Part shown: piece after piece, positions 9,977 through 29,257 of the stretch
Position numbering within the stretch: position 1 is the first letter of the stretch
Layout: every line of letters begins with the position of its first letter
DNA from: Candidatus Avelusimicrobium bubulum
Lineage (GTDB): Bacteria > Elusimicrobiota > Elusimicrobia > Elusimicrobiales > Elusimicrobiaceae
Reading direction: 5' to 3'
NCBI GenBank assembly: GCA_902798835.1
Contig: CADBYN010000009.1
Location: 1-37,110, forward strand
DNA: 37,110 bases
Made by a program: the position numbers and the translations under genes
Notes under the pieces: generated by a model
Database searches by the model: none
What the model saw: the letters and a program-made list of their open reading frames with translations, nothing else
Told to the model about the DNA's origin: nothing

Positions 9977-11301
9977 TAATCGTCGTAACAACTCATACCA
10001 GATTTAGGGGCTCCATCTTTTGCAGTACACTTACGCCACTGTCTGCCCGTTGTGTCACCACCTGGGGTTGTCGGCGGAGCCGGCGTACCAGCAGGGCAGT
10101 AACTAAATTTAGAATCATTTTCTCCCGTACAATAGGACGTATTATCGTAGGTGCTTTGACTAATTGGACAAGTACCCGAAGCCCGGGCTTCGCAAACAGA
10201 TCCATTTGTGAAGTTACTCTTATCACACGCATTGCCCCCTCTGCCTATACAACGCGAACCATCAAAAAGAGAGTTCCCACATCCTCCATTTGTTGCGTTT
10301 GATGTACAGGTGGACCCTTCTTTATACCAACTGCGTCCGCAACCAAAAGAGTTGGTAGATTCATTAACGCATTCGGAATTGTAGTATTGTGCAGAATTGG
10401 CACCTGTGGTATCTGTCTTACCGCCTTTATCGTTCCCTCCACAAGCCGTATTAACTGCGCCACTTGCATTGTTTTGGTTCACAACACACACCGATCCATT
10501 TGTAAAAACACTTTGCTGACAACCGGCTACCGGGCTTGTTCCTCCTCCTGTTTGACCGGCGGTACAAGTGGAATTGTTTGAAAATTCAGAGAATGCACAT
10601 CCCTGCTTTCCCCCGTTGGCTATACTACACGCAGATCCGTCATCATAAGAAGAATTAGCACAACCTCCATTGACCCCCGTAGCCTCACATTCAGCACCTG
10701 AGGCTTGCAAATTTTGACATGCATTAGCTTGTGTGGCCGAACAGGTATCTCCTTCTTCGAGTGTAAGGTTGGATTCGTTGGTATAAGCAATGGCAAACGC
10801 GCCATCTTCCGTATTCCCTTGAATAATATAGGTATCATACCCTTTGGTAAGACTCCCGTGAGATACTTTGGTTCCTCCCAGCGCATTTTGGCACAACCAA
10901 GTGGCCATGGCATCGCCTTTTTTCGCTTCGCAATGTATGTTAGAAGGATATTGTTTGCTGCGAGACTGATACATCACATAATTGTTATTTACGCCCGGCC
11001 GGTTTACAAGTACGTAGCTAAAATTATCATTATCCGCTAATTGAACGCTCGTACCATCAGGATATTCATTTTGGCCTGTTACAATGAGGGAAGATAAATT
11101 GGTAGCATATCGGCGATTCCCCAAGTAATATACCTCGTTTCCTTGATAAATGCCTTTTGCTACCGGCATCAACGCATGAAAACGGCTTTTATACACCGCC
11201 CGCTGATACTGCGGAACAGCAATAGATGCCAGCGTAGCAATAATCAAAACAACCACCAACACCTCAAGAAGGGTAAAACCTAATTTTATATTCTTGTTCA
11301 T
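9976..11301 (-). CDS. Type IV pilin-like protein with Cys-rich repeat domain (copy 1)
   Basis: The N-terminus is a class III prepilin signal: leader MNKNIKLG, cleavage before F, then FTLLEVLVVV with the conserved Glu at mature position 5 and a long hydrophobic helix. A pilin-like body follows to about residue 190. The remainder is about 250 residues rich in Gly, Ser and Asn with 22 cysteines, built from modules with two Cys 10 residues apart in the pattern GCxxSxFxNGSxC. At 441 residues it is about three times a normal major pilin. I start it at 11301, which has AGGAG upstream; the upstream frame to 11343 lacks a proper leader. It would be processed by a prepilin peptidase and may be a large minor pilin or adhesin; no pilus assembly gene is nearby. 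Its neighbour at 11436-12761 is a close paralogue. Confidence 0.85.
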   Translation of the reverse strand: MNKNIKLGFTLLEVLVVVLIIATLASIAVPQYQRAVYKSRFHALMPVAKGIYQGNEVYYLGNRRYATNLSSLIVTGQNEYPDGTSVQLADNDNFSYVLVNRPGVNNNYVMYQSRSKQYPSNIHCEAKKGDAMATWLCQNALGGTKVSHGSLTKGYDTYIIQGNTEDGAFAIAYTNESNLTLEEGDTCSATQANACQNLQASGAECEATGVNGGCANSSYDDGSACSIANGGKQGCAFSEFSNNSTCTAGQTGGGTSPVAGCQQSVFTNGSVCVVNQNNASGAVNTACGGNDKGGKTDTTGANSAQYYNSECVNESTNSFGCGRSWYKEGSTCTSNATNGGCGNSLFDGSRCIGRGGNACDKSNFTNGSVCEARASGTCPISQSTYDNTSYCTGENDSKFSYCPAGTPAPPTTPGGDTTGRQWRKCTAKDGAPKSGMSCYDD

Positions 11302-11435: not shown

Positions 11436-12761
11436 TTAATTGTCGTAACAACTCATACCAGATTTAGGAGCTCCATCGCTCGCAGTACACTGACGCCATT
11501 GTTTTCCGGTTGTGTCACCGCCAGGCGTTGCCGGTGGAGCCGGCGTACCGACAGGGCAGTAACTGTATCGGGAATTATTTTTCCCCGCACAATAAGAAGT
11601 GTTATCGTACGTGCTTTGATCACTTGGACAAGTACCCGAAGCCCGCGCCTCGCAAACTGACCCGTTTGTAAAGTTACTCTTATCGCAGGCGTTGCCCCCT
11701 CTGCCTATACAACGCGAATTATCAAAACGCGAATTTCCGCAGCCCCCGTTATTGGTACTTGATGTACAGGTAGAACCTTCTTTATACCAACTGCGTCCGC
11801 AACCAAAAGAGTTGGTAGATTCATTAATACATTCGGAATGATAGTATTGTGCCGAATTGGCGCCCGTGGTATCTGCTTTACCGCCTTTATCGTTTCCGCC
11901 GCACGCCGTATTAACTGCGCCGTTGGCATTATTTTGGTTCACAACGCACACAGATCCTTCTGTAAAGACACTTTGCTGACATCCAGCTACCGGGCTCGTT
12001 CCGCCTGTTGTTTGACCGGCGGCACAAGTAGAATTATTTGAAAATTCGGAATTCGCGCATCCCTGCTTTCCGCCATTTGCTGTACTACACGTAGAGCCAT
12101 CATTGTAAGAAGAATTGGCACAACCCCCGTTGACTCCTGTCGCTTCACACCCAGCACCGGAGGCTTCCAAATGTTGACAGCCATTGGCTTGTGTGGCCGT
12201 GCACGTATCCCCTTCTTCCAGCGTAAGGTTTGATTCGTTTGTGTAGCTAGAAGACAGTGTCCCGTCGGCTTCGCTTCCTTTAAGAATATAGGTATCATAT
12301 CCCTTGGTGAGGTTCCCGCGGGAAATTTTAGTTCCTCCCAAAGACTCTCCGCATAACCAAGCTGCCTTTTCATCGCCTTTTTTAGCTTCACAGTGAATGT
12401 TGGAAGGGTAACGTTTGCTGCGGGCCTGGTACATAACGTAATTATTATTTAAATTATCCCGTTTTACAAGCACGTAACTGTATTTGTCATCTGTGGCCAA
12501 TTGAACACTCGTTCCGTCCGGATACTCGTTGGCACCTGTTATCATCAATGATGATACATCTGTTGCGTAATGACCATTCGTTAAATAAAAGTCCTCATTT
12601 CCCTGATTGATCCCTCGGGCAATTGACATCAGGGTGCGGAAACGACTTTTGTACACAGCTTTTTGATACTGCGGAACGGCCACTGCTGCTAATACGGCCA
12701 CAATTATGACAGCAATTAATATTTCGATAAGGGTAAAACCCAAATTTGTTTCATGGTTCAT
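11436..12761 (-). CDS. Type IV pilin-like protein with Cys-rich repeat domain (copy 2)
   Basis: A paralogue of the gene at 9976-11301 with identical length (441 residues from the ATG at 12761). Leader MNHETNLG, then FTLIEILIAVIIV with Glu5. By eye the N-terminal third differs at many positions (for example VAKGIYQGNE against IARGINQGNE), while the C-terminal Cys-rich half is nearly the same and keeps all 24 cysteines of the protein. The start is chosen for the leader and for the AAGGGAG ribosome site; the frame upstream to 12791 is not needed. The shared 3' half may reflect recent duplication, gene conversion or strong constraint. Function as for copy 1: exported pilin-type surface protein, role unknown. 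Confidence 0.85.
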   Translation of the reverse strand: MNHETNLGFTLIEILIAVIIVAVLAAVAVPQYQKAVYKSRFRTLMSIARGINQGNEDFYLTNGHYATDVSSLMITGANEYPDGTSVQLATDDKYSYVLVKRDNLNNNYVMYQARSKRYPSNIHCEAKKGDEKAAWLCGESLGGTKISRGNLTKGYDTYILKGSEADGTLSSSYTNESNLTLEEGDTCTATQANGCQHLEASGAGCEATGVNGGCANSSYNDGSTCSTANGGKQGCANSEFSNNSTCAAGQTTGGTSPVAGCQQSVFTEGSVCVVNQNNANGAVNTACGGNDKGGKADTTGANSAQYYHSECINESTNSFGCGRSWYKEGSTCTSSTNNGGCGNSRFDNSRCIGRGGNACDKSNFTNGSVCEARASGTCPSDQSTYDNTSYCAGKNNSRYSYCPVGTPAPPATPGGDTTGKQWRQCTASDGAPKSGMSCYDN

Positions 12762-24157: not shown

Positions 24158-25121
24158 ATACGTTTTCATCATGATACTTTGTTTCTTGTTTGTAGAAGGA
24201 TGCAGCTCGCTCCAAAATGGGTTTTTGGGCATAGCTCCTTTTGGGGATAAGCAAGAGTATGTACGTGCTCGCAATCTATATAATGAACAAAAGTATGAAG
24301 AAGCTGTGAACGAATTAACCCGTTATATTTACAAAGCTGGGAACGTCAATCGTCGGGAAGCCCGCGCCTATCGCTTATTAGGTATGAGCTATGAACAACT
24401 CAACCAATTGGGCAAAGCCTTGGAGACATATTTGGAGGCACTCGAATTTCACCCCAATAATGTCCCGTTGTTAATAGCAGCTGCCGCGCTCTACCAACGA
24501 ACCGAACTCATTGATAAATCCCAGGCCCTTTATCAACGGGCTCTAGAACAAGAACCGAACAATTTACAAGCCTTGGCCGGGCAAGCTGAAAATTACCGCG
24601 CTTTCGGGTTCTTCTCACAAGCCCGCAATTATTATGATAAATTTTTTAAACTAAATCCAAGTGCTTCCCCACAATACCGCGCAAAATATGCTTCTACATT
24701 TTTAAATCAGGGAAATTTCGAACAGGCCTTCATTCATATCACTATGGCTTTGTCGGAAGATGCTTACCAACCTGATTATTGGCTTATTAGCGCTAAGGCC
24801 TCTTTTGGGTTGGGGCGCTATAATGATGCCTTAAACGCAATCGATACTGCCTTGGATTTAGCTCCGGATCGTACCGATCTGCAACTTTACAAAATTATTG
24901 GTCTTTACCAAACCCAGCATTATAAAGACTCAGCCCGCTGGGCACGTCAATTTATCCAAAAAAACCCTGACAATCAACTTGGCTGGTTACTGCTGGCTCT
25001 TAACGAGTGGAAATTAAATCAACGCACCTCAGCGCGAACACATCTACAAAAAGCAACAGCCTTTGAAGAAAACTCTTTTACCGGGCAAGTAGCTTCTAAA
25101 TTATTACAAGAATGGAAATAA
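24141..25121 (+). CDS. TPR-repeat lipoprotein
   Basis: A 326-residue protein with a lipoprotein signal (MILCFLFVEGC, lipidated Cys at about 21) and roughly seven tetratricopeptide repeats, for example QKYEEAVNELTRYI, GKALETYLEALEFHPNN and GRYNDALNAIDTALDLAPDR. TPR lipoproteins act as scaffolds for complexes at the outer membrane; BamD and PilF are known types, but neither is clearly matched here. The start is uncertain: ATG 24129 adds four residues. Either way the gene overlaps the patatin gene, so the two are coupled. It is the last gene of the operon, followed directly by a terminator. Confidence 0.85.
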   Translation: MYLKSKYVFIMILCFLFVEGCSSLQNGFLGIAPFGDKQEYVRARNLYNEQKYEEAVNELTRYIYKAGNVNRREARAYRLLGMSYEQLNQLGKALETYLEALEFHPNNVPLLIAAAALYQRTELIDKSQALYQRALEQEPNNLQALAGQAENYRAFGFFSQARNYYDKFFKLNPSASPQYRAKYASTFLNQGNFEQAFIHITMALSEDAYQPDYWLISAKASFGLGRYNDALNAIDTALDLAPDRTDLQLYKIIGLYQTQHYKDSARWARQFIQKNPDNQLGWLLLALNEWKLNQRTSARTHLQKATAFEENSFTGQVASKLLQEWK

Positions 25122-25147
25122 AAAGACCGCCCTAAAGGCGATCTTTT
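25121..25147. terminator. Bidirectional terminator between TPR gene and TldE-like gene
   Basis: AAAAGA-C-CGCC pairs with GGCG-A-TCTTTT around a 5-base loop with one internal mismatch. It closes both converging operons. Confidence 0.82.
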
Positions 25148-25153
25148 AAATGA

Positions 25154-26833
25154 TTATGGTTTGGAAACAAATGGTTTCTTGTCTGGTTTTTTATCAGTAG
25201 GAACAAATTCCAGCTCATCTATTAGCAATGCCGGCGAAGACACACTTTGTTTAGGCAGTCCGTTGGAAGACGGCTCCGTCTGCCTCCATAAAACTTTGGC
25301 TTGATTCCCTGCCGCGGTAATATCACGCAAGGCGCGTGTAGTCAAATTAGCCAAACGCAAACCGTACACGGTTTCACGCTTGTTTCCAGTAGTATAAACA
25401 CGTACCGCACGCGACACAATGCCATCATCGCTTGCAGGGAAATCATACAATATGTATCCGTAGTCTAACCCTAATTCACGACAGCGGCTCAATAGTCTCT
25501 CTTCCAATTCCCGGTCTGATAACGCAACTTGTGGCTCCACCAGCACATTGGTCAGCCGCTCACGCGGAAAAGATTGAGGGGCAAAACGCGCATGTCCGTT
25601 ACTGGAAAGCTTAGCACCAAACGGACGGCTGGTACGCGGCAACTGCTGCAAACGCCCAGCTTCTACCAAAGTCAATTTTTGTGCTGCTGCTCCTTCATCA
25701 TCTACCGGCATAAAACCACCTAAAGGGATATTTTCCACAGAGCCAGGGACCGAACGCACTTGTGGGTTATCATAGACAGTTATCCCAGGCGCCATAACCC
25801 GTTGGCCCGGGGTGCGCATCTTGCCGGCAGTTATATCTACTTCACTACGACTAGAGAGTAAGGGATTTAGATTTTGTAGATTTTCAACTAGTAAATTATG
25901 TATAAACTGTCCGGCCGCTTGCGGGCGCAATAACACCGGTCCCAAATAAGGCGCAGGCTTTACAGCTTGCTGAAGTGGCTCGAGTTCTTTTAGAAATTGC
26001 GCAGTCTGCTGGGTTAGTTTTTCATAAGCATCTTTCCCCAAAGAGGACCACCAAAATTCATTCTCATAATCTTGCTTATACCCACTTGTATTACGAAACT
26101 TAGCAAAGAGACGTACTCGTACCGCCGGTTGGGAAACCTGATAAAATCCGCCTAAATTATTAAGATAATAGGTGTCGCGCTGACGGGGTTCAATGCGCAC
26201 CGAAAACTGTTCCAGAAACGGATACGCCTTCCCCATAGCCGATAATTGTTTTACCCATTTTTGCAATTGCTCAATATCATACTTCTCAACAGGTTGAATT
26301 TCCTCTACATAATGGGCTTGTTTAGAAGGCATAAAATCAGGAAGTTTTGTTTCATTTTCTTCTTGCTTAGTACGCTTATAAGCTTCTTTTTGCTGATAAA
26401 GTTCCGCTGCAAACAAATAGCTCTCGTCTGTCATTTTCCATAAAGCTTGGCGAATGCCATCATAACTTTTGGCAATATTGTTGTAATATTCCGGAGCATA
26501 AGCATACCGAGGCGAATAGGAATCGTGTTTATAACCCAAACTATCGTTCTTGTTTGTGCCGATAGAAATCATCACGCTGCCATTCAATTTATCATCGCGT
26601 TGCGAAACGGGGTACAATTCCCCCAGAGAAGCTTCCACCGACGAAGCCGCACGCAAATTTTCCAACTTATAAACTATAAATAACGGCGCGGGCACCCCTT
26701 GCCGATGAAGTTTTTTGACAGTGCGGGACATTTCATCTCTCATGGCCTTAAAATACATATTATCCGGCAAAGCGGCGCTTTGTGCGAGTCCACACATTCC
26801 TAAAAAACAAAAAAGCAAACTGAGTTTTTTCAT
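25154..26833 (-). CDS. Exported TldD/TldE-family protein without the zinc motif
   Basis: A 559-residue protein with a signal peptide (MKKLSLLFCFLGMCGLAQSA) and overall similarity of layout to the upstream TldD-like protein. The zinc motif HExxxH of TldD is replaced: at the aligned place the sequence reads FIHNLLVENL, with H312 kept, the Glu turned to Asn (313) and the second His to Glu (317). The conserved Cys near the C-terminus is also absent. This is the state of TldE (PmbA), the inactive partner in the TldD-TldE protease. The two genes are one base apart, so a secreted heterodimer is likely. The C-terminal tail is rich in Lys and Pro. Substrate unknown. Ribosome site GGGGAGGG. Confidence 0.8.
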   Translation of the reverse strand: MKKLSLLFCFLGMCGLAQSAALPDNMYFKAMRDEMSRTVKKLHRQGVPAPLFIVYKLENLRAASSVEASLGELYPVSQRDDKLNGSVMISIGTNKNDSLGYKHDSYSPRYAYAPEYYNNIAKSYDGIRQALWKMTDESYLFAAELYQQKEAYKRTKQEENETKLPDFMPSKQAHYVEEIQPVEKYDIEQLQKWVKQLSAMGKAYPFLEQFSVRIEPRQRDTYYLNNLGGFYQVSQPAVRVRLFAKFRNTSGYKQDYENEFWWSSLGKDAYEKLTQQTAQFLKELEPLQQAVKPAPYLGPVLLRPQAAGQFIHNLLVENLQNLNPLLSSRSEVDITAGKMRTPGQRVMAPGITVYDNPQVRSVPGSVENIPLGGFMPVDDEGAAAQKLTLVEAGRLQQLPRTSRPFGAKLSSNGHARFAPQSFPRERLTNVLVEPQVALSDRELEERLLSRCRELGLDYGYILYDFPASDDGIVSRAVRVYTTGNKRETVYGLRLANLTTRALRDITAAGNQAKVLWRQTEPSSNGLPKQSVSSPALLIDELEFVPTDKKPDKKPFVSKP

Positions 26834-26834
26834 T

Positions 26835-28523
26835 TTATTTACCCTCCCCGAACGGTGGCGGCAAAAGCGGAGGCTTTGTATTGGATTTGCCTGTCTTTTC
26901 GATTTCTAATCTGCGCAATAATACGCTAGGCGCAATGCTGGAAACAGGAACCCACCCGGACTCTGCACCGCAACTGCCGTTAAAAACATCATAATCATCC
27001 GCTACCGCCATCACTTCGTGAAAAGCAGCCAATGGGGTCCCCACAATGTCCGCTCCGCGCACTACTTCTCTGCGACCATCCGGATAAACCCGGTACACTA
27101 GGGTAGGTGTCAATTTGAAAGTTTGCGGATAACTGGTATCCGTCATTGTAAAACCACCCGATAAATCTTCAATAATAAACCCATAGGGTTTTTGTTGGCG
27201 TTTGATTTCTTCTAAGAATTGTTGCTCCAATGCTTCATATGAAACAGTTTTAGAAGCAATTACCCGCGTATTCCCCATACGGGCCACGGGGCGCTTGCCC
27301 ATATCGCCGCGGCCGTGACCGTTGGAAACAGAAAATCCTTTAATAGGACTAGAACTCATCAAGAATCCTTTTAAGATGCCGTTTTCCACCAACGTAACCG
27401 GGCGTGCTTTTACTCCCTCGTCATCATATAAGTAAAATCCACGCAACGGTTGCCCGTTAAATTCTGCCAACGTGGCATCATCCACGATGCTAAGCAACGG
27501 AGAAGTCACCTCTTGCCCTACTTTATCGGTGAAAGTTTTCCCAAACGAATCTTCTTTTTGGCGATGCCCCTCCACACGGTGCCCTAACACTTCATGCACA
27601 AAAACGGCCATAGCCTTGTTTTTGAGCAATACCGGCACAGCCACAGGATCAGCTTCGGGAGCATTTAACAACGCCTCCAATTCCTGCAAACTTTGCTTGA
27701 TGTCGGCCGTTAATTTCGCTTCATCCGGCAATTGTTCCTGCGTCAATACGTCATAATTTTGAGAACGATCTGCCCACGCTCCGTCAGCTGTTTTCCCCCA
27801 TAACGAATAAGACAGGCGAGCTAAACGTACCGGGGTTTTTAGTTGCGTACCTATCGAATCGGCAAAATAGCGACTTCCGCTTTGTACTTCAAAAGAAAAT
27901 GAACTTCCTAGCACAAATGGTTTCCCGCGTGTCAAATTAGAAACTTTTAACAAAAGTTCCTTGATTTGTTCCATATCAAATGTCAATGAAGGGGACTCTT
28001 GACAAAAAATTTCTTTGGGCGGAAACACAAAATCCGGGGAATCATCTAATCGTTTCGCCCCTGTTTGTGAATCAGCACGGACACGGTTAAAATCCTGTTG
28101 GGCATCTTCGGCGGCTTGTTCCGTCAAACGCCACACCGCTGCCGAAAAAGCCTTCCCGTCTTCCCCAATGGCGGGCATATCTGCTATTTCTAAAGAACGA
28201 TACGTATTCCCCGTTTTCAATGTGCGGGTATTATCCATTTGCAAACTTCCGGCGCGTACTTGCACTTGCAACATAGCATCATGCCGCTTGGTATGATTGG
28301 TAACCCCTTTTTCTTCTACATCTATACCATATACATCTAAATCATCAAAGTTATAAGCCACATAGTAAATGGGCGGATTTTGTTTCTTGAACGTTTTCAT
28401 GCTGCGGTTAATTTCTTTGGACATTAACTGCAGCGGCCGTTGGTCTTGTACGCGGCATATTGTCTGAGCAAAGACCGGAAAGGCGAATACCAATAATACG
28501 CAAAGTAGTAGGAGTCTTTTCAT
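26835..28523 (-). CDS. Exported TldD-like metallopeptidase
   Basis: A 562-residue protein with a signal peptide (MKRLLLLCVLLVFAFPVFAQ). The zinc site is FVHEVLGHRVEGH, with HExxxH at H310, E311 and H315, and the third ligand is probably C518 in GSCGAESGWVPV, matching the C-terminal GMCGK region of TldD. DSFGKTFTDKVGQEV and YDDEGVKARPVTLVENG are also TldD-like. TldD cuts unfolded peptides inside a closed TldD-TldE cavity in the cytoplasm of E. coli, where it matures microcin B17; here both partners have export signals. It heads a two-gene operon. The ATG at 28523 lies 7 bases after an extended -10 box, with no ribosome site, so it is probably leaderless. It is divergent from the tRNA gene. Confidence 0.88.
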   Translation of the reverse strand: MKRLLLLCVLLVFAFPVFAQTICRVQDQRPLQLMSKEINRSMKTFKKQNPPIYYVAYNFDDLDVYGIDVEEKGVTNHTKRHDAMLQVQVRAGSLQMDNTRTLKTGNTYRSLEIADMPAIGEDGKAFSAAVWRLTEQAAEDAQQDFNRVRADSQTGAKRLDDSPDFVFPPKEIFCQESPSLTFDMEQIKELLLKVSNLTRGKPFVLGSSFSFEVQSGSRYFADSIGTQLKTPVRLARLSYSLWGKTADGAWADRSQNYDVLTQEQLPDEAKLTADIKQSLQELEALLNAPEADPVAVPVLLKNKAMAVFVHEVLGHRVEGHRQKEDSFGKTFTDKVGQEVTSPLLSIVDDATLAEFNGQPLRGFYLYDDEGVKARPVTLVENGILKGFLMSSSPIKGFSVSNGHGRGDMGKRPVARMGNTRVIASKTVSYEALEQQFLEEIKRQQKPYGFIIEDLSGGFTMTDTSYPQTFKLTPTLVYRVYPDGRREVVRGADIVGTPLAAFHEVMAVADDYDVFNGSCGAESGWVPVSSIAPSVLLRRLEIEKTGKSNTKPPLLPPPFGEGK

Positions 28524-28593: not shown

Positions 28594-28666
28594 GCTGAGG
28601 TAGCTCAACTGGCAGAGCAACGGTTTTGTAAACCGTAGGTTGTGGGTTCGATTCCCATCCTCAGCT
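28594..28666 (+). tRNA. tRNA-Thr (anticodon UGU)
   Basis: A complete 73-base cloverleaf. The acceptor arms GCTGAGG and CCTCAGC pair fully, the D arm is GCTC/GAGC, the anticodon stem ACGGT/ACCGT encloses the loop TTTGTAA with anticodon TGT, and the T arm GTGGG-TTCGATT-CCCAT is normal. The 3' CCA is not encoded and must be added by a nucleotidyltransferase. A terminator follows at 28698. Confidence 0.97.
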
Positions 28667-28697
28667 ATTTTGTTGCTCTTTTTTCCATTTTACTCAT

Positions 28698-28727
28698 AAA
28701 AAGCCCCGGCACAAACCGGGGCTTTTT
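28698..28727. terminator. Bidirectional terminator between tRNA-Thr and pilin 3
   Basis: AAAAAGCCCCGG (28698-28709) pairs with CCGGGGCTTTTT (28716-28727) around a 6-base loop. Confidence 0.92.
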
Positions 28728-28741
28728 ATGACAACAAATCA

Positions 28742-29257
28742 TTAATATCCGGTATCGTTATAAATCCACCCTTGTCCTCTTAAAATATTACAAATATAAC
28801 GACCAACTTCCGTTTCCTGTGTAAAACATCCATATGGTTTGTTATTTTCATTACCTGCTAAGGTATACAAAGAATGGTGAGAAGGCCCCAATCTGTAAAT
28901 TTCTATCACGCAACCATAACTCGCACATGAAACTTCATAATACCCAAAATTTTCGGTTACGTTAGAGGATTCTTCTTCATCCCAATGCCCTAAATTAATT
29001 TCTATTGGACATTTCATATCTTCCAAGCTCACATATTCACCTTGTTTTGGCAACCCATGTTCTAGTTTATACCAATCAAAACATTCTTCAATAAGTTTGA
29101 TATTATGTAATGCTTCTGTTAAACGGCTTTTTTCAACAGCACGTTGATATTGCGGAAGCGCAATGGCCGCCAAAATACCGATGATGAGCACAACAACAAG
29201 TAATTCGATGAGCGTGAAACCTTTTCCTCGTGTCACTTCCTTATTCTTTTTTTCCAT
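28742..29257 (-). CDS. Type IV pilin-like protein (PilE-like)
   Basis: A 171-residue pilin of ordinary size. The prepilin leader ends in GKG, then [32 protein letters not shown], with Glu5 of the mature protein and the typical hydrophobic helix (shown here only in outline: residues 14-45). The globular part has six cysteines, four of them in the last 70 residues, and lacks the repeat domain of the two large pilins at 9976-12761. The leader of 13 residues is longer than in those. Ribosome site AAGGAGA. A TATAAA box about 30 bases upstream may be the -10. Stands alone, without assembly genes nearby; major or minor pilin cannot be told. Confidence 0.88.

What the first reader, a model, noticed from the sequence alone, without database searches (positions are those of the whole stretch)
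25154..28523. Exported TldD-TldE-like protease pair
One protein keeps the HExxxH zinc motif and C-terminal Cys; the adjacent one has HNxxxE instead. Both have signal peptides. Known TldD-TldE works in the cytoplasm on unfolded peptides such as microcin B17. A secreted version would act on periplasmic or exported peptides and its substrate is unknown.
Basis: partly seen in the sequence, partly recalled or inferred. Interest (0 to 1): 0.58.

Follow-up and report, generated by a model that had tools for sequence, protein, structure and literature searches.

The report
Exported two-part TldD-like metalloprotease
A gut bacterium carries a pair of adjacent genes for a secreted relative of the TldD/TldE protein-shredding enzyme, one half active and one half inactive, and the inactive half seems to have evolved separately from the one already known.

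Summary
Two adjacent genes on the minus strand (A 26835-28523, B 25154-26833) encode signal-peptide-bearing proteins of the TldD/PmbA superfamily. A keeps HExxxH plus the distant Cys in all 46 relatives aligned (45 distinct); B has lost the zinc site. B's HNxxxE is peculiar to this genome (His in 1 of 46).

The pair is adjacent in all 45 related loci collected and present in all 61 related genomes searched. In the window's own genus it is the only TldD/E-type system left: the cytoplasmic form is absent in 37 of 37 genomes but present in 23 of 24 of the sister family. Predicted folds match only TldD/TldE.

The main addition is evolutionary. With active-site columns left out, A and B group together against cytoplasmic TldD plus TldE, and a tree joining B with TldE is rejected (AU p 7e-5 and 6.5e-4). 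So the dead partner probably arose a second time: it works like TldE but is not a TldE orthologue.

Most likely function: a periplasmic heterodimeric zinc peptidase trimming unfolded peptides. Substrate unknown; a pilin link is not supported. In 9 of 20 sister-family loci the pair lies among xanthine-dehydrogenase-type genes. Location, metal, dimer and activity are inferred, not shown.

The parts
26835..28523 (-). A: exported TldD-like catalytic subunit, 562 aa (signal peptide about residues 1-19; HEVLGH 310-315; C518)
25154..26833 (-). B: exported partner, 559 aa, same superfamily, zinc ligands lost (signal peptide about residues 1-20)
28467..28523 (-). Predicted Sec signal peptide of A (about the first 19 residues), by eye and rule scan
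26774..26833 (-). Predicted Sec signal peptide of B (about the first 20 residues), by eye and rule scan
27579..27596 (-). HEVLGH zinc-binding/catalytic motif of A (residues 310-315)
26970..26972 (-). C518 of A, aligned with the third metal ligand C454 of E. coli TldD
25121..25147 (-). Terminator-like hairpin just after B
28695..28732 (-). Strong terminator-like hairpin after the upstream prepilin gene, separating it from A
   Evidence: -27.1 kcal/mol, z -8.3; seen in the sequence; not listed by the scan
28594..28666 (+). tRNA-Thr between prepilin and A, opposite strand (not part of the system; marks the boundary)

Best explanation
The two genes form a bicistronic unit for a secreted heterodimeric zinc metallopeptidase of the TldD fold. 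Both chains leave the cytoplasm by the Sec route and are expected to work in the periplasm. A carries the metal (H310, H315, C518) and the general base E311. B has the same fold without a metal site and closes the other half of a hollow shell. Unfolded peptides enter and are cut a few residues at a time from the N-terminus, as worked out for E. coli TldD/E. I expect a general role: degrading or scavenging unfolded and partly digested peptides in the cell envelope, rather than maturing one dedicated product. The inactive partner evolved from an active exported ancestor, independently of TldE. Shown here: genes, motifs, fold of B and of A's N-terminal half, pairing, phylogeny, loss of the cytoplasmic form in the window's genus. 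Inferred: location, metal, dimer, activity, substrate.
For: Active-site residues invariant in 46 of 46 A. B-type site degenerate. Signal-peptide-like N-termini kept in 87 of 92 A/B proteins, 0 of 24 cytoplasmic relatives. Pair adjacent and co-directional in 45 loci plus the window, mostly with overlapping or nearly touching genes. A and B both found in 61 of 61 related genomes. Foldseek against the PDB returns only TldD/PmbA entries with E under 0.001 (16 of 16 for each model); VIA-align Z 18.6 for B and 12.9 for A, next unrelated 5.5 and 5.1. Profile A against E. coli TldD 77 bits, E 8e-21. Gene neighbours differ between lineages, which fits a general rather than a pathway-specific role.
Against: No experiment, and no signal-peptide program was available. 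The A model is poor over the catalytic half (mean pLDDT 54; 290-433 under 50). The dimer was not modelled. The Lys456-Asp272 salt bridge that tethers the clamp in E. coli is not kept (position 520 Ala in 44 and Ser in 2 of 46; position 320 His in 41 of 46), so the cleft may differ. Nine of 20 sister-family loci tie the pair to xanthine-dehydrogenase-type genes, which points to a more specific role there.
Confidence: 0.62

Rival explanations
1. A dedicated maturation protease: the pair removes a leader from one exported peptide (RiPP, pilin-like or other), as TldD/E does for microcin B17.
For: Known TldD/E matures several RiPPs (PMC5810440 abstract and sections read; PMC10885120 passages). A prepilin gene lies beside A in the window.
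Against: No partner gene is shared beside the pair across families (only ORFs of 70 aa or more were compared, so a very small precursor gene could have been missed). A prepilin is near the pair in 5 of 41 loci at varying places and the genome has 66 N_methyl matches. In the window a terminator-like hairpin and a tRNA gene separate the prepilin from A.
Confidence: 0.17
2. A periplasmic amidase acting on a small amide or peptide-linked heterocycle, feeding xanthine-dehydrogenase-type hydroxylases; related in chemistry to the N-deacetylase branch of the TldD family (LmbQ/CcbQ, recalled).
For: In 9 of 20 sister-family loci, from 5 genera, the pair stands co-directionally among genes for one or two xanthine-dehydrogenase-type triads and a CsgG/FlgO-like protein, with gaps from -4 to 312 bases beside A and B.
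Against: The window's own family has no such neighbours. The other 11 of 20 sister-family loci lack them; 6 of these have a polysaccharide deacetylase instead. Pairing with a dead subunit resembles the peptidases.
Confidence: 0.12
3. An ordinary cytoplasmic TldD/TldE whose N-terminal hydrophobic stretch is not a signal peptide.
For: Same superfamily and fold.
Against: Hydrophobic, mostly positively charged N-termini kept in 87 of 92 while cytoplasmic relatives have none in 24. The sister family keeps a separate cytoplasmic set in 23 of 24 genomes. In profile comparisons the exported pair is a separate group.
Confidence: 0.04
4. A acts alone or as a homodimer and B has an unrelated role, such as peptide binding.
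For: Some class-level loci (L101, L105, L107) showed an A-like gene without a detected partner in the stretch fetched. A homodimer was reported for an archaeal TldD (cited in PMC5810440).
Against: Strict adjacency in 45 loci plus window and presence of both in 61 of 61 genomes. B keeps the full fold.
Confidence: 0.05

Closest known systems
E. coli TldD (MEROPS M103; PDB 5NJ5 chain A)
   Same: HExxxH plus distant Cys; E270 counterpart E318 invariant; C-terminal domain homologous (77 bits); N-terminal domain same fold (Z 12.9).
   Different: A has a Sec-like signal peptide and is about 80 residues longer. Lys456/Asp272 are mostly Ala/His here. It misses the N-terminal Pfam model PF01523 and the NCBIfam TldD equivalog cut-offs.
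E. coli TldE/PmbA (PDB 5NJ5 chain B) and Thermotoga TM0727 (1VL4)
   Same: Inactive partner with the same fold and no metal site.
   Different: B is exported and by phylogeny a paralogue of A; joining B with TldE is rejected.
Cytoplasmic TldD/TldE pairs of the same order (for example loci L091, L093, L096)
   Same: Paired active and inactive genes, in the sister-family genomes that also carry the exported pair.
   Different: No signal peptide, PF01523 present, separate clade; missing altogether in the window's genus.
TldD-type N-deacetylases of lincosamide biosynthesis (LmbQ/CcbQ; recalled; title of the Vobruba 2022 review seen in a reference list)
   Same: Same superfamily (recalled).
   Different: Not compared by sequence here.

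Membership tests
TldD/PmbA superfamily (Pfam PF19289) | C-terminal domain PF19289 above the gathering score | tested here: met
   108 and 58.6 bits against 22
TldD/PmbA superfamily | TldD/TldE two-domain fold | tested here: met
   B Z 18.6 over 391 residues; A mainly over about 23-288, Z about 12.8. A's catalytic half was modelled too poorly to test
TldD/PmbA superfamily | N-terminal domain PF01523 (PmbA_TldD_1st) by sequence | tested here: not met
   No hit in A or B nor anywhere in G000; the fold is nevertheless present
TldD (M103 catalytic subunit) | HExxxH plus third ligand Cys | tested here: met
   H310, E311, H315, C518 in 46 of 46, aligned with H262, E263, H267, C454
TldD (NCBIfam equivalogs NF008006, NF040952) | score above curated cut-off | tested here: not met
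   70.4 of 513 and 89.3 of 635 bits
TldD (M103) | metal binding and peptidase activity as heterodimer | not testable with these tools
   needs protein
TldE/PmbA | TldE fold without HExxxH and Cys | tested here: met
TldE/PmbA | orthology: B groups with TldE | tested here: not met
   B groups with A; AU p 7.3e-5 and 6.5e-4 against B+TldE
Cytoplasmic TldD/E system | no export signal | tested here: not met
   signal-peptide-like N-termini, 87 of 92; rule scan only

The most novel reading that the evidence does not exclude
The hollow-shell TldD protease was reinvented outside the cytoplasm: an exported active subunit duplicated and one copy lost its zinc site a second time, giving a separately evolved active/inactive heterodimer that in host-associated Elusimicrobium replaced the cytoplasmic TldD/E. 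In the sister family with larger genomes it works together with xanthine-dehydrogenase-type enzymes on a peptide-linked substrate.
Probability: 0.3. Interest if true: 0.68.

Novelty: new variant of a known kind. Interest (0 to 1): 0.5.

Why it matters
TldD/E is widespread but its normal substrates are largely unknown (PMC5810440, discussion read). An exported version gives the same fold a different compartment and pool of substrates. If the inactive subunit evolved twice, then a dead partner is likely a mechanical need of this protease (to close the chamber) and not an accident of history, which can be tested by comparing two independent solutions. Bacteria with small genomes that kept only the exported form would be a clean setting in which to find its substrates.

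Tried and rejected
Pilin link: rejected.

Disulfide as proof of export: Cys23 and Cys174 of A occur together in 26 of 26 family-f1 sequences (25 distinct) and in 0 of 20 of family f2, never singly. I took this at first as a disulfide and so as support for export. But the f1 genomes show no DsbA-type protein over the cut-off (PF01323: 0 of 37), only weak Thioredoxin_4 matches, and VKOR is absent in all 61 genomes, while the f2 genomes, which lack the Cys pair, have DsbA-type proteins. The pair is real but its meaning is open.

Asp as third ligand: I suspected it in class-level relatives because a regular expression found no G-x-C-G-x-E. The alignment shows Cys there too. Rejected.

Spread beyond the phylum: not settled. 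'of' takes only genome handles and the single genome-contig scan reached only close relatives (5 loci). Plasmid records (72,556) gave no match covering 80% of A (60 records matched) and one partial match for a B. I recall database entries for signal-peptide-bearing TldD/PmbA proteins in other phyla; this was not tested.

Literature: searches of the open-access library for TldD with TldE, signal peptide, Elusimicrobi, twin-arginine, MEROPS+secreted, periplasmic, and PmbA with periplasm (listings read only) showed no paper on an exported TldD/E. Vobruba 2022 (review of the family) and the Elusimicrobium minutum genome paper are not held and were not read.

Full report
What is there. I call the upstream one A (26835-28523, 562 aa) and the downstream one B (25154-26833, 559 aa). 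Both hit one Pfam family only, PF19289, the C-terminal domain of PmbA/TldD. Neither hits the N-terminal family PF01523. A scores far below the NCBIfam TldD equivalog cut-offs and B hits no NCBIfam model. By sequence, A's C-terminal half is closest to E. coli TldD among solved structures, and B finds no TldD/E entry as a single sequence. As a profile of 43 relatives B finds PmbA/TldE and TldD chains weakly, best E 0.0016; A as a profile of 45 finds TldD at E 8e-21.

Relatives. The window is a whole contig of a 1.35-Mb genome, 96% complete. The five named loci that match A at 61-75% identity come from uncultured Elusimicrobium/Elusimicrobiaceae, some titled from rumen. Of 61 genomes (own, 36 of the same genus, 24 of a sister family in the order), all 61 carry both an A-type and a B-type match, with some B in pieces at contig ends and two pairs in one genome. 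In 45 loci plus the window the two genes are neighbours on one strand. A phylum-wide sample of 294 genomes gave 194 with any match at E 1e-10. By my own count of that table 164 have an exported-type match (E under 1e-90): 77 of 79 in the window's family, 44 of 46 in the sister family, 42 of 64 elsewhere in the class, and 1 of 105 outside the class, where mis-binning is possible (80 genomes without a match are not listed there and I took them as lying outside the class). Signal peptides were not checked one by one in that sample.

Active site. In 46 aligned A sequences (45 distinct) H310, E311, G314, H315, E318, C518 and G519 never vary. They align with E. coli TldD so that H310, E311, H315, E318 and C518 stand on H262, E263, H267, E270 and C454, which the structure paper gives as metal ligands, HExxxH glutamate and a structural residue (PMC5810440; abstract, sections 11, 13 and 15 read). 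Lys456 and Asp272, which tether the clamp in E. coli, are mostly Ala and His here, so the cleft is probably built somewhat differently. B has no conserved residue at these places; the window's HNxxxE is one of many combinations. B is under constraint elsewhere: 29 invariant columns in 43 sequences, including the S-N-G-H motif also seen in A.

Export. Both N-termini look like Sec signal peptides without a lipobox. A simple rule scan passes 43 of 46 A and 44 of 46 B, and 0 of 24 cytoplasmic TldD/TldE treated alike; it also passes 198 of 386 neighbouring ORFs, so the contrast with the cytoplasmic relatives matters, not the raw rate. One A (L046) has a lipobox-like site. No signal-peptide program was at hand. 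The window encodes a BamA-type protein, so export should lead to a periplasm.

Fold. AlphaFold on six sequences gave a fair model of B (pLDDT 68) and, for A, a good N-terminal domain but a poor catalytic half (pLDDT 54 in all). Foldseek finds 16 PDB chains with E under 0.001 for each model, all TldD/PmbA; the next hits are at about 0.02 and 0.01. VIA-align gives Z 18.6 for B over 391 residues and 12.9 for A over 226, with the next unrelated entries at 5.5 and 5.1. The N-terminal domain is thus TldD-like although Pfam misses it.

Cytoplasmic form lost. PF01523, which marks cytoplasmic TldD/E, is found in 0 of 37 genomes of the window's genus (own included) and in 23 of 24 of the sister family. 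PF19289 counts agree: two per genome in the first group (one and four in two incomplete genomes), and four or more in the sister family except one genome with two. The small genomes of the window's genus therefore kept only the exported pair.

Descent. Profile comparisons already show A closest to B (score 738), TldD closest to TldE (306), A to TldD 250, B to TldE 131, B to TldD 121. A tree of the C-terminal domain with active-site columns left out separates A, B and class-level exported relatives from TldD plus TldE at 100/100. Holding all HExxxH-bearing rows together is rejected (AU p 2e-6), as is B with TldE (p 7e-5). With a new alignment and five doubtful rows dropped the split stays at 100/100 and B with TldE is again rejected (p 6.5e-4). 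Branches between the two groups are long and cytoplasmic sampling is thin, so I hold the second origin of a dead partner as likely, not proven. One class-level relative (L106) has a possible third case, not resolved (AU p 0.06 for joining it with B).

Surroundings. In the window's family the pair stands between opposite-strand genes: TolC-type and patatin genes on one side in 19 of 21 loci (window included), TerC on the other in 18 of 21. This is conserved order without shared transcription. B is followed by a terminator-like hairpin. The prepilin upstream of A is cut off by a strong hairpin and an opposite tRNA-Thr, and this genome has 66 N_methyl matches, so that neighbour means little. In the sister family, 9 of 20 loci from five genera carry the pair among xanthine-dehydrogenase-type genes: an FAD subunit, a [2Fe-2S] subunit and a molybdopterin subunit on one or both sides, plus a CsgG/FlgO-like protein, all co-directional and mostly close-packed. 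Another 6 of 20 have a polysaccharide deacetylase just after B, and 5 of 20 have neither. No partner is shared by all, which is why I favour a general peptidase, while the xanthine-dehydrogenase link is the best lead to a specific one.

How it works. By analogy with E. coli TldD/E, A would hold the metal and cut; B would complete the shell; the narrow entry would admit only unfolded chains (PMC5810440). Each of these steps is inferred for this pair. What I can show is that the residues needed for it are conserved in A and that B's metal site is gone.

Novelty. I found no paper on an exported TldD/E in seven listings of the open-access library; the main review of the family could not be read. 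The pair is a new variant of a known kind. It is not a TldE-containing system by descent.

Noticed in passing
L039, L042, L044, L046, L048, L050, L051, L052, L058 (sister family): The exported pair sits among co-directional genes for one or two xanthine-dehydrogenase-type triads and a CsgG/FlgO-like protein, in 9 of 20 loci from five genera.
   Followed up: partly
A residues 23 and 174 (window 28455-28457 and 28002-28004, minus strand): A cysteine pair is present in all 26 A sequences of the window's family and absent in all 20 of the sister family, yet the genomes that have it lack a recognisable DsbA or VKOR.
   Followed up: partly
whole genome G000; window 29156-29224, 11218-11283, 12678-12740: 66 prepilin N-methylation motif matches in a 1.35-Mb genome, many in short proteins; far more than I would expect for one type IV pilus.
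   Followed up: no
L106: An exported active gene followed by a partner that lost HExxxH and groups with it in one tree: a possible third origin of an inactive TldE-like subunit.
   Followed up: partly
G039:C10, G040:C46, G044:C18, G046:C7 and C26, G051:C26, G056:C100: Several sister-family genomes hold more than one cytoplasmic-type TldD/E pair.
   Followed up: no
G196:C53 (L110): The only exported pair found outside the class, in a genome with 4% contamination; related genomes listed from its family have none, so it may be mis-binned.
   Followed up: no
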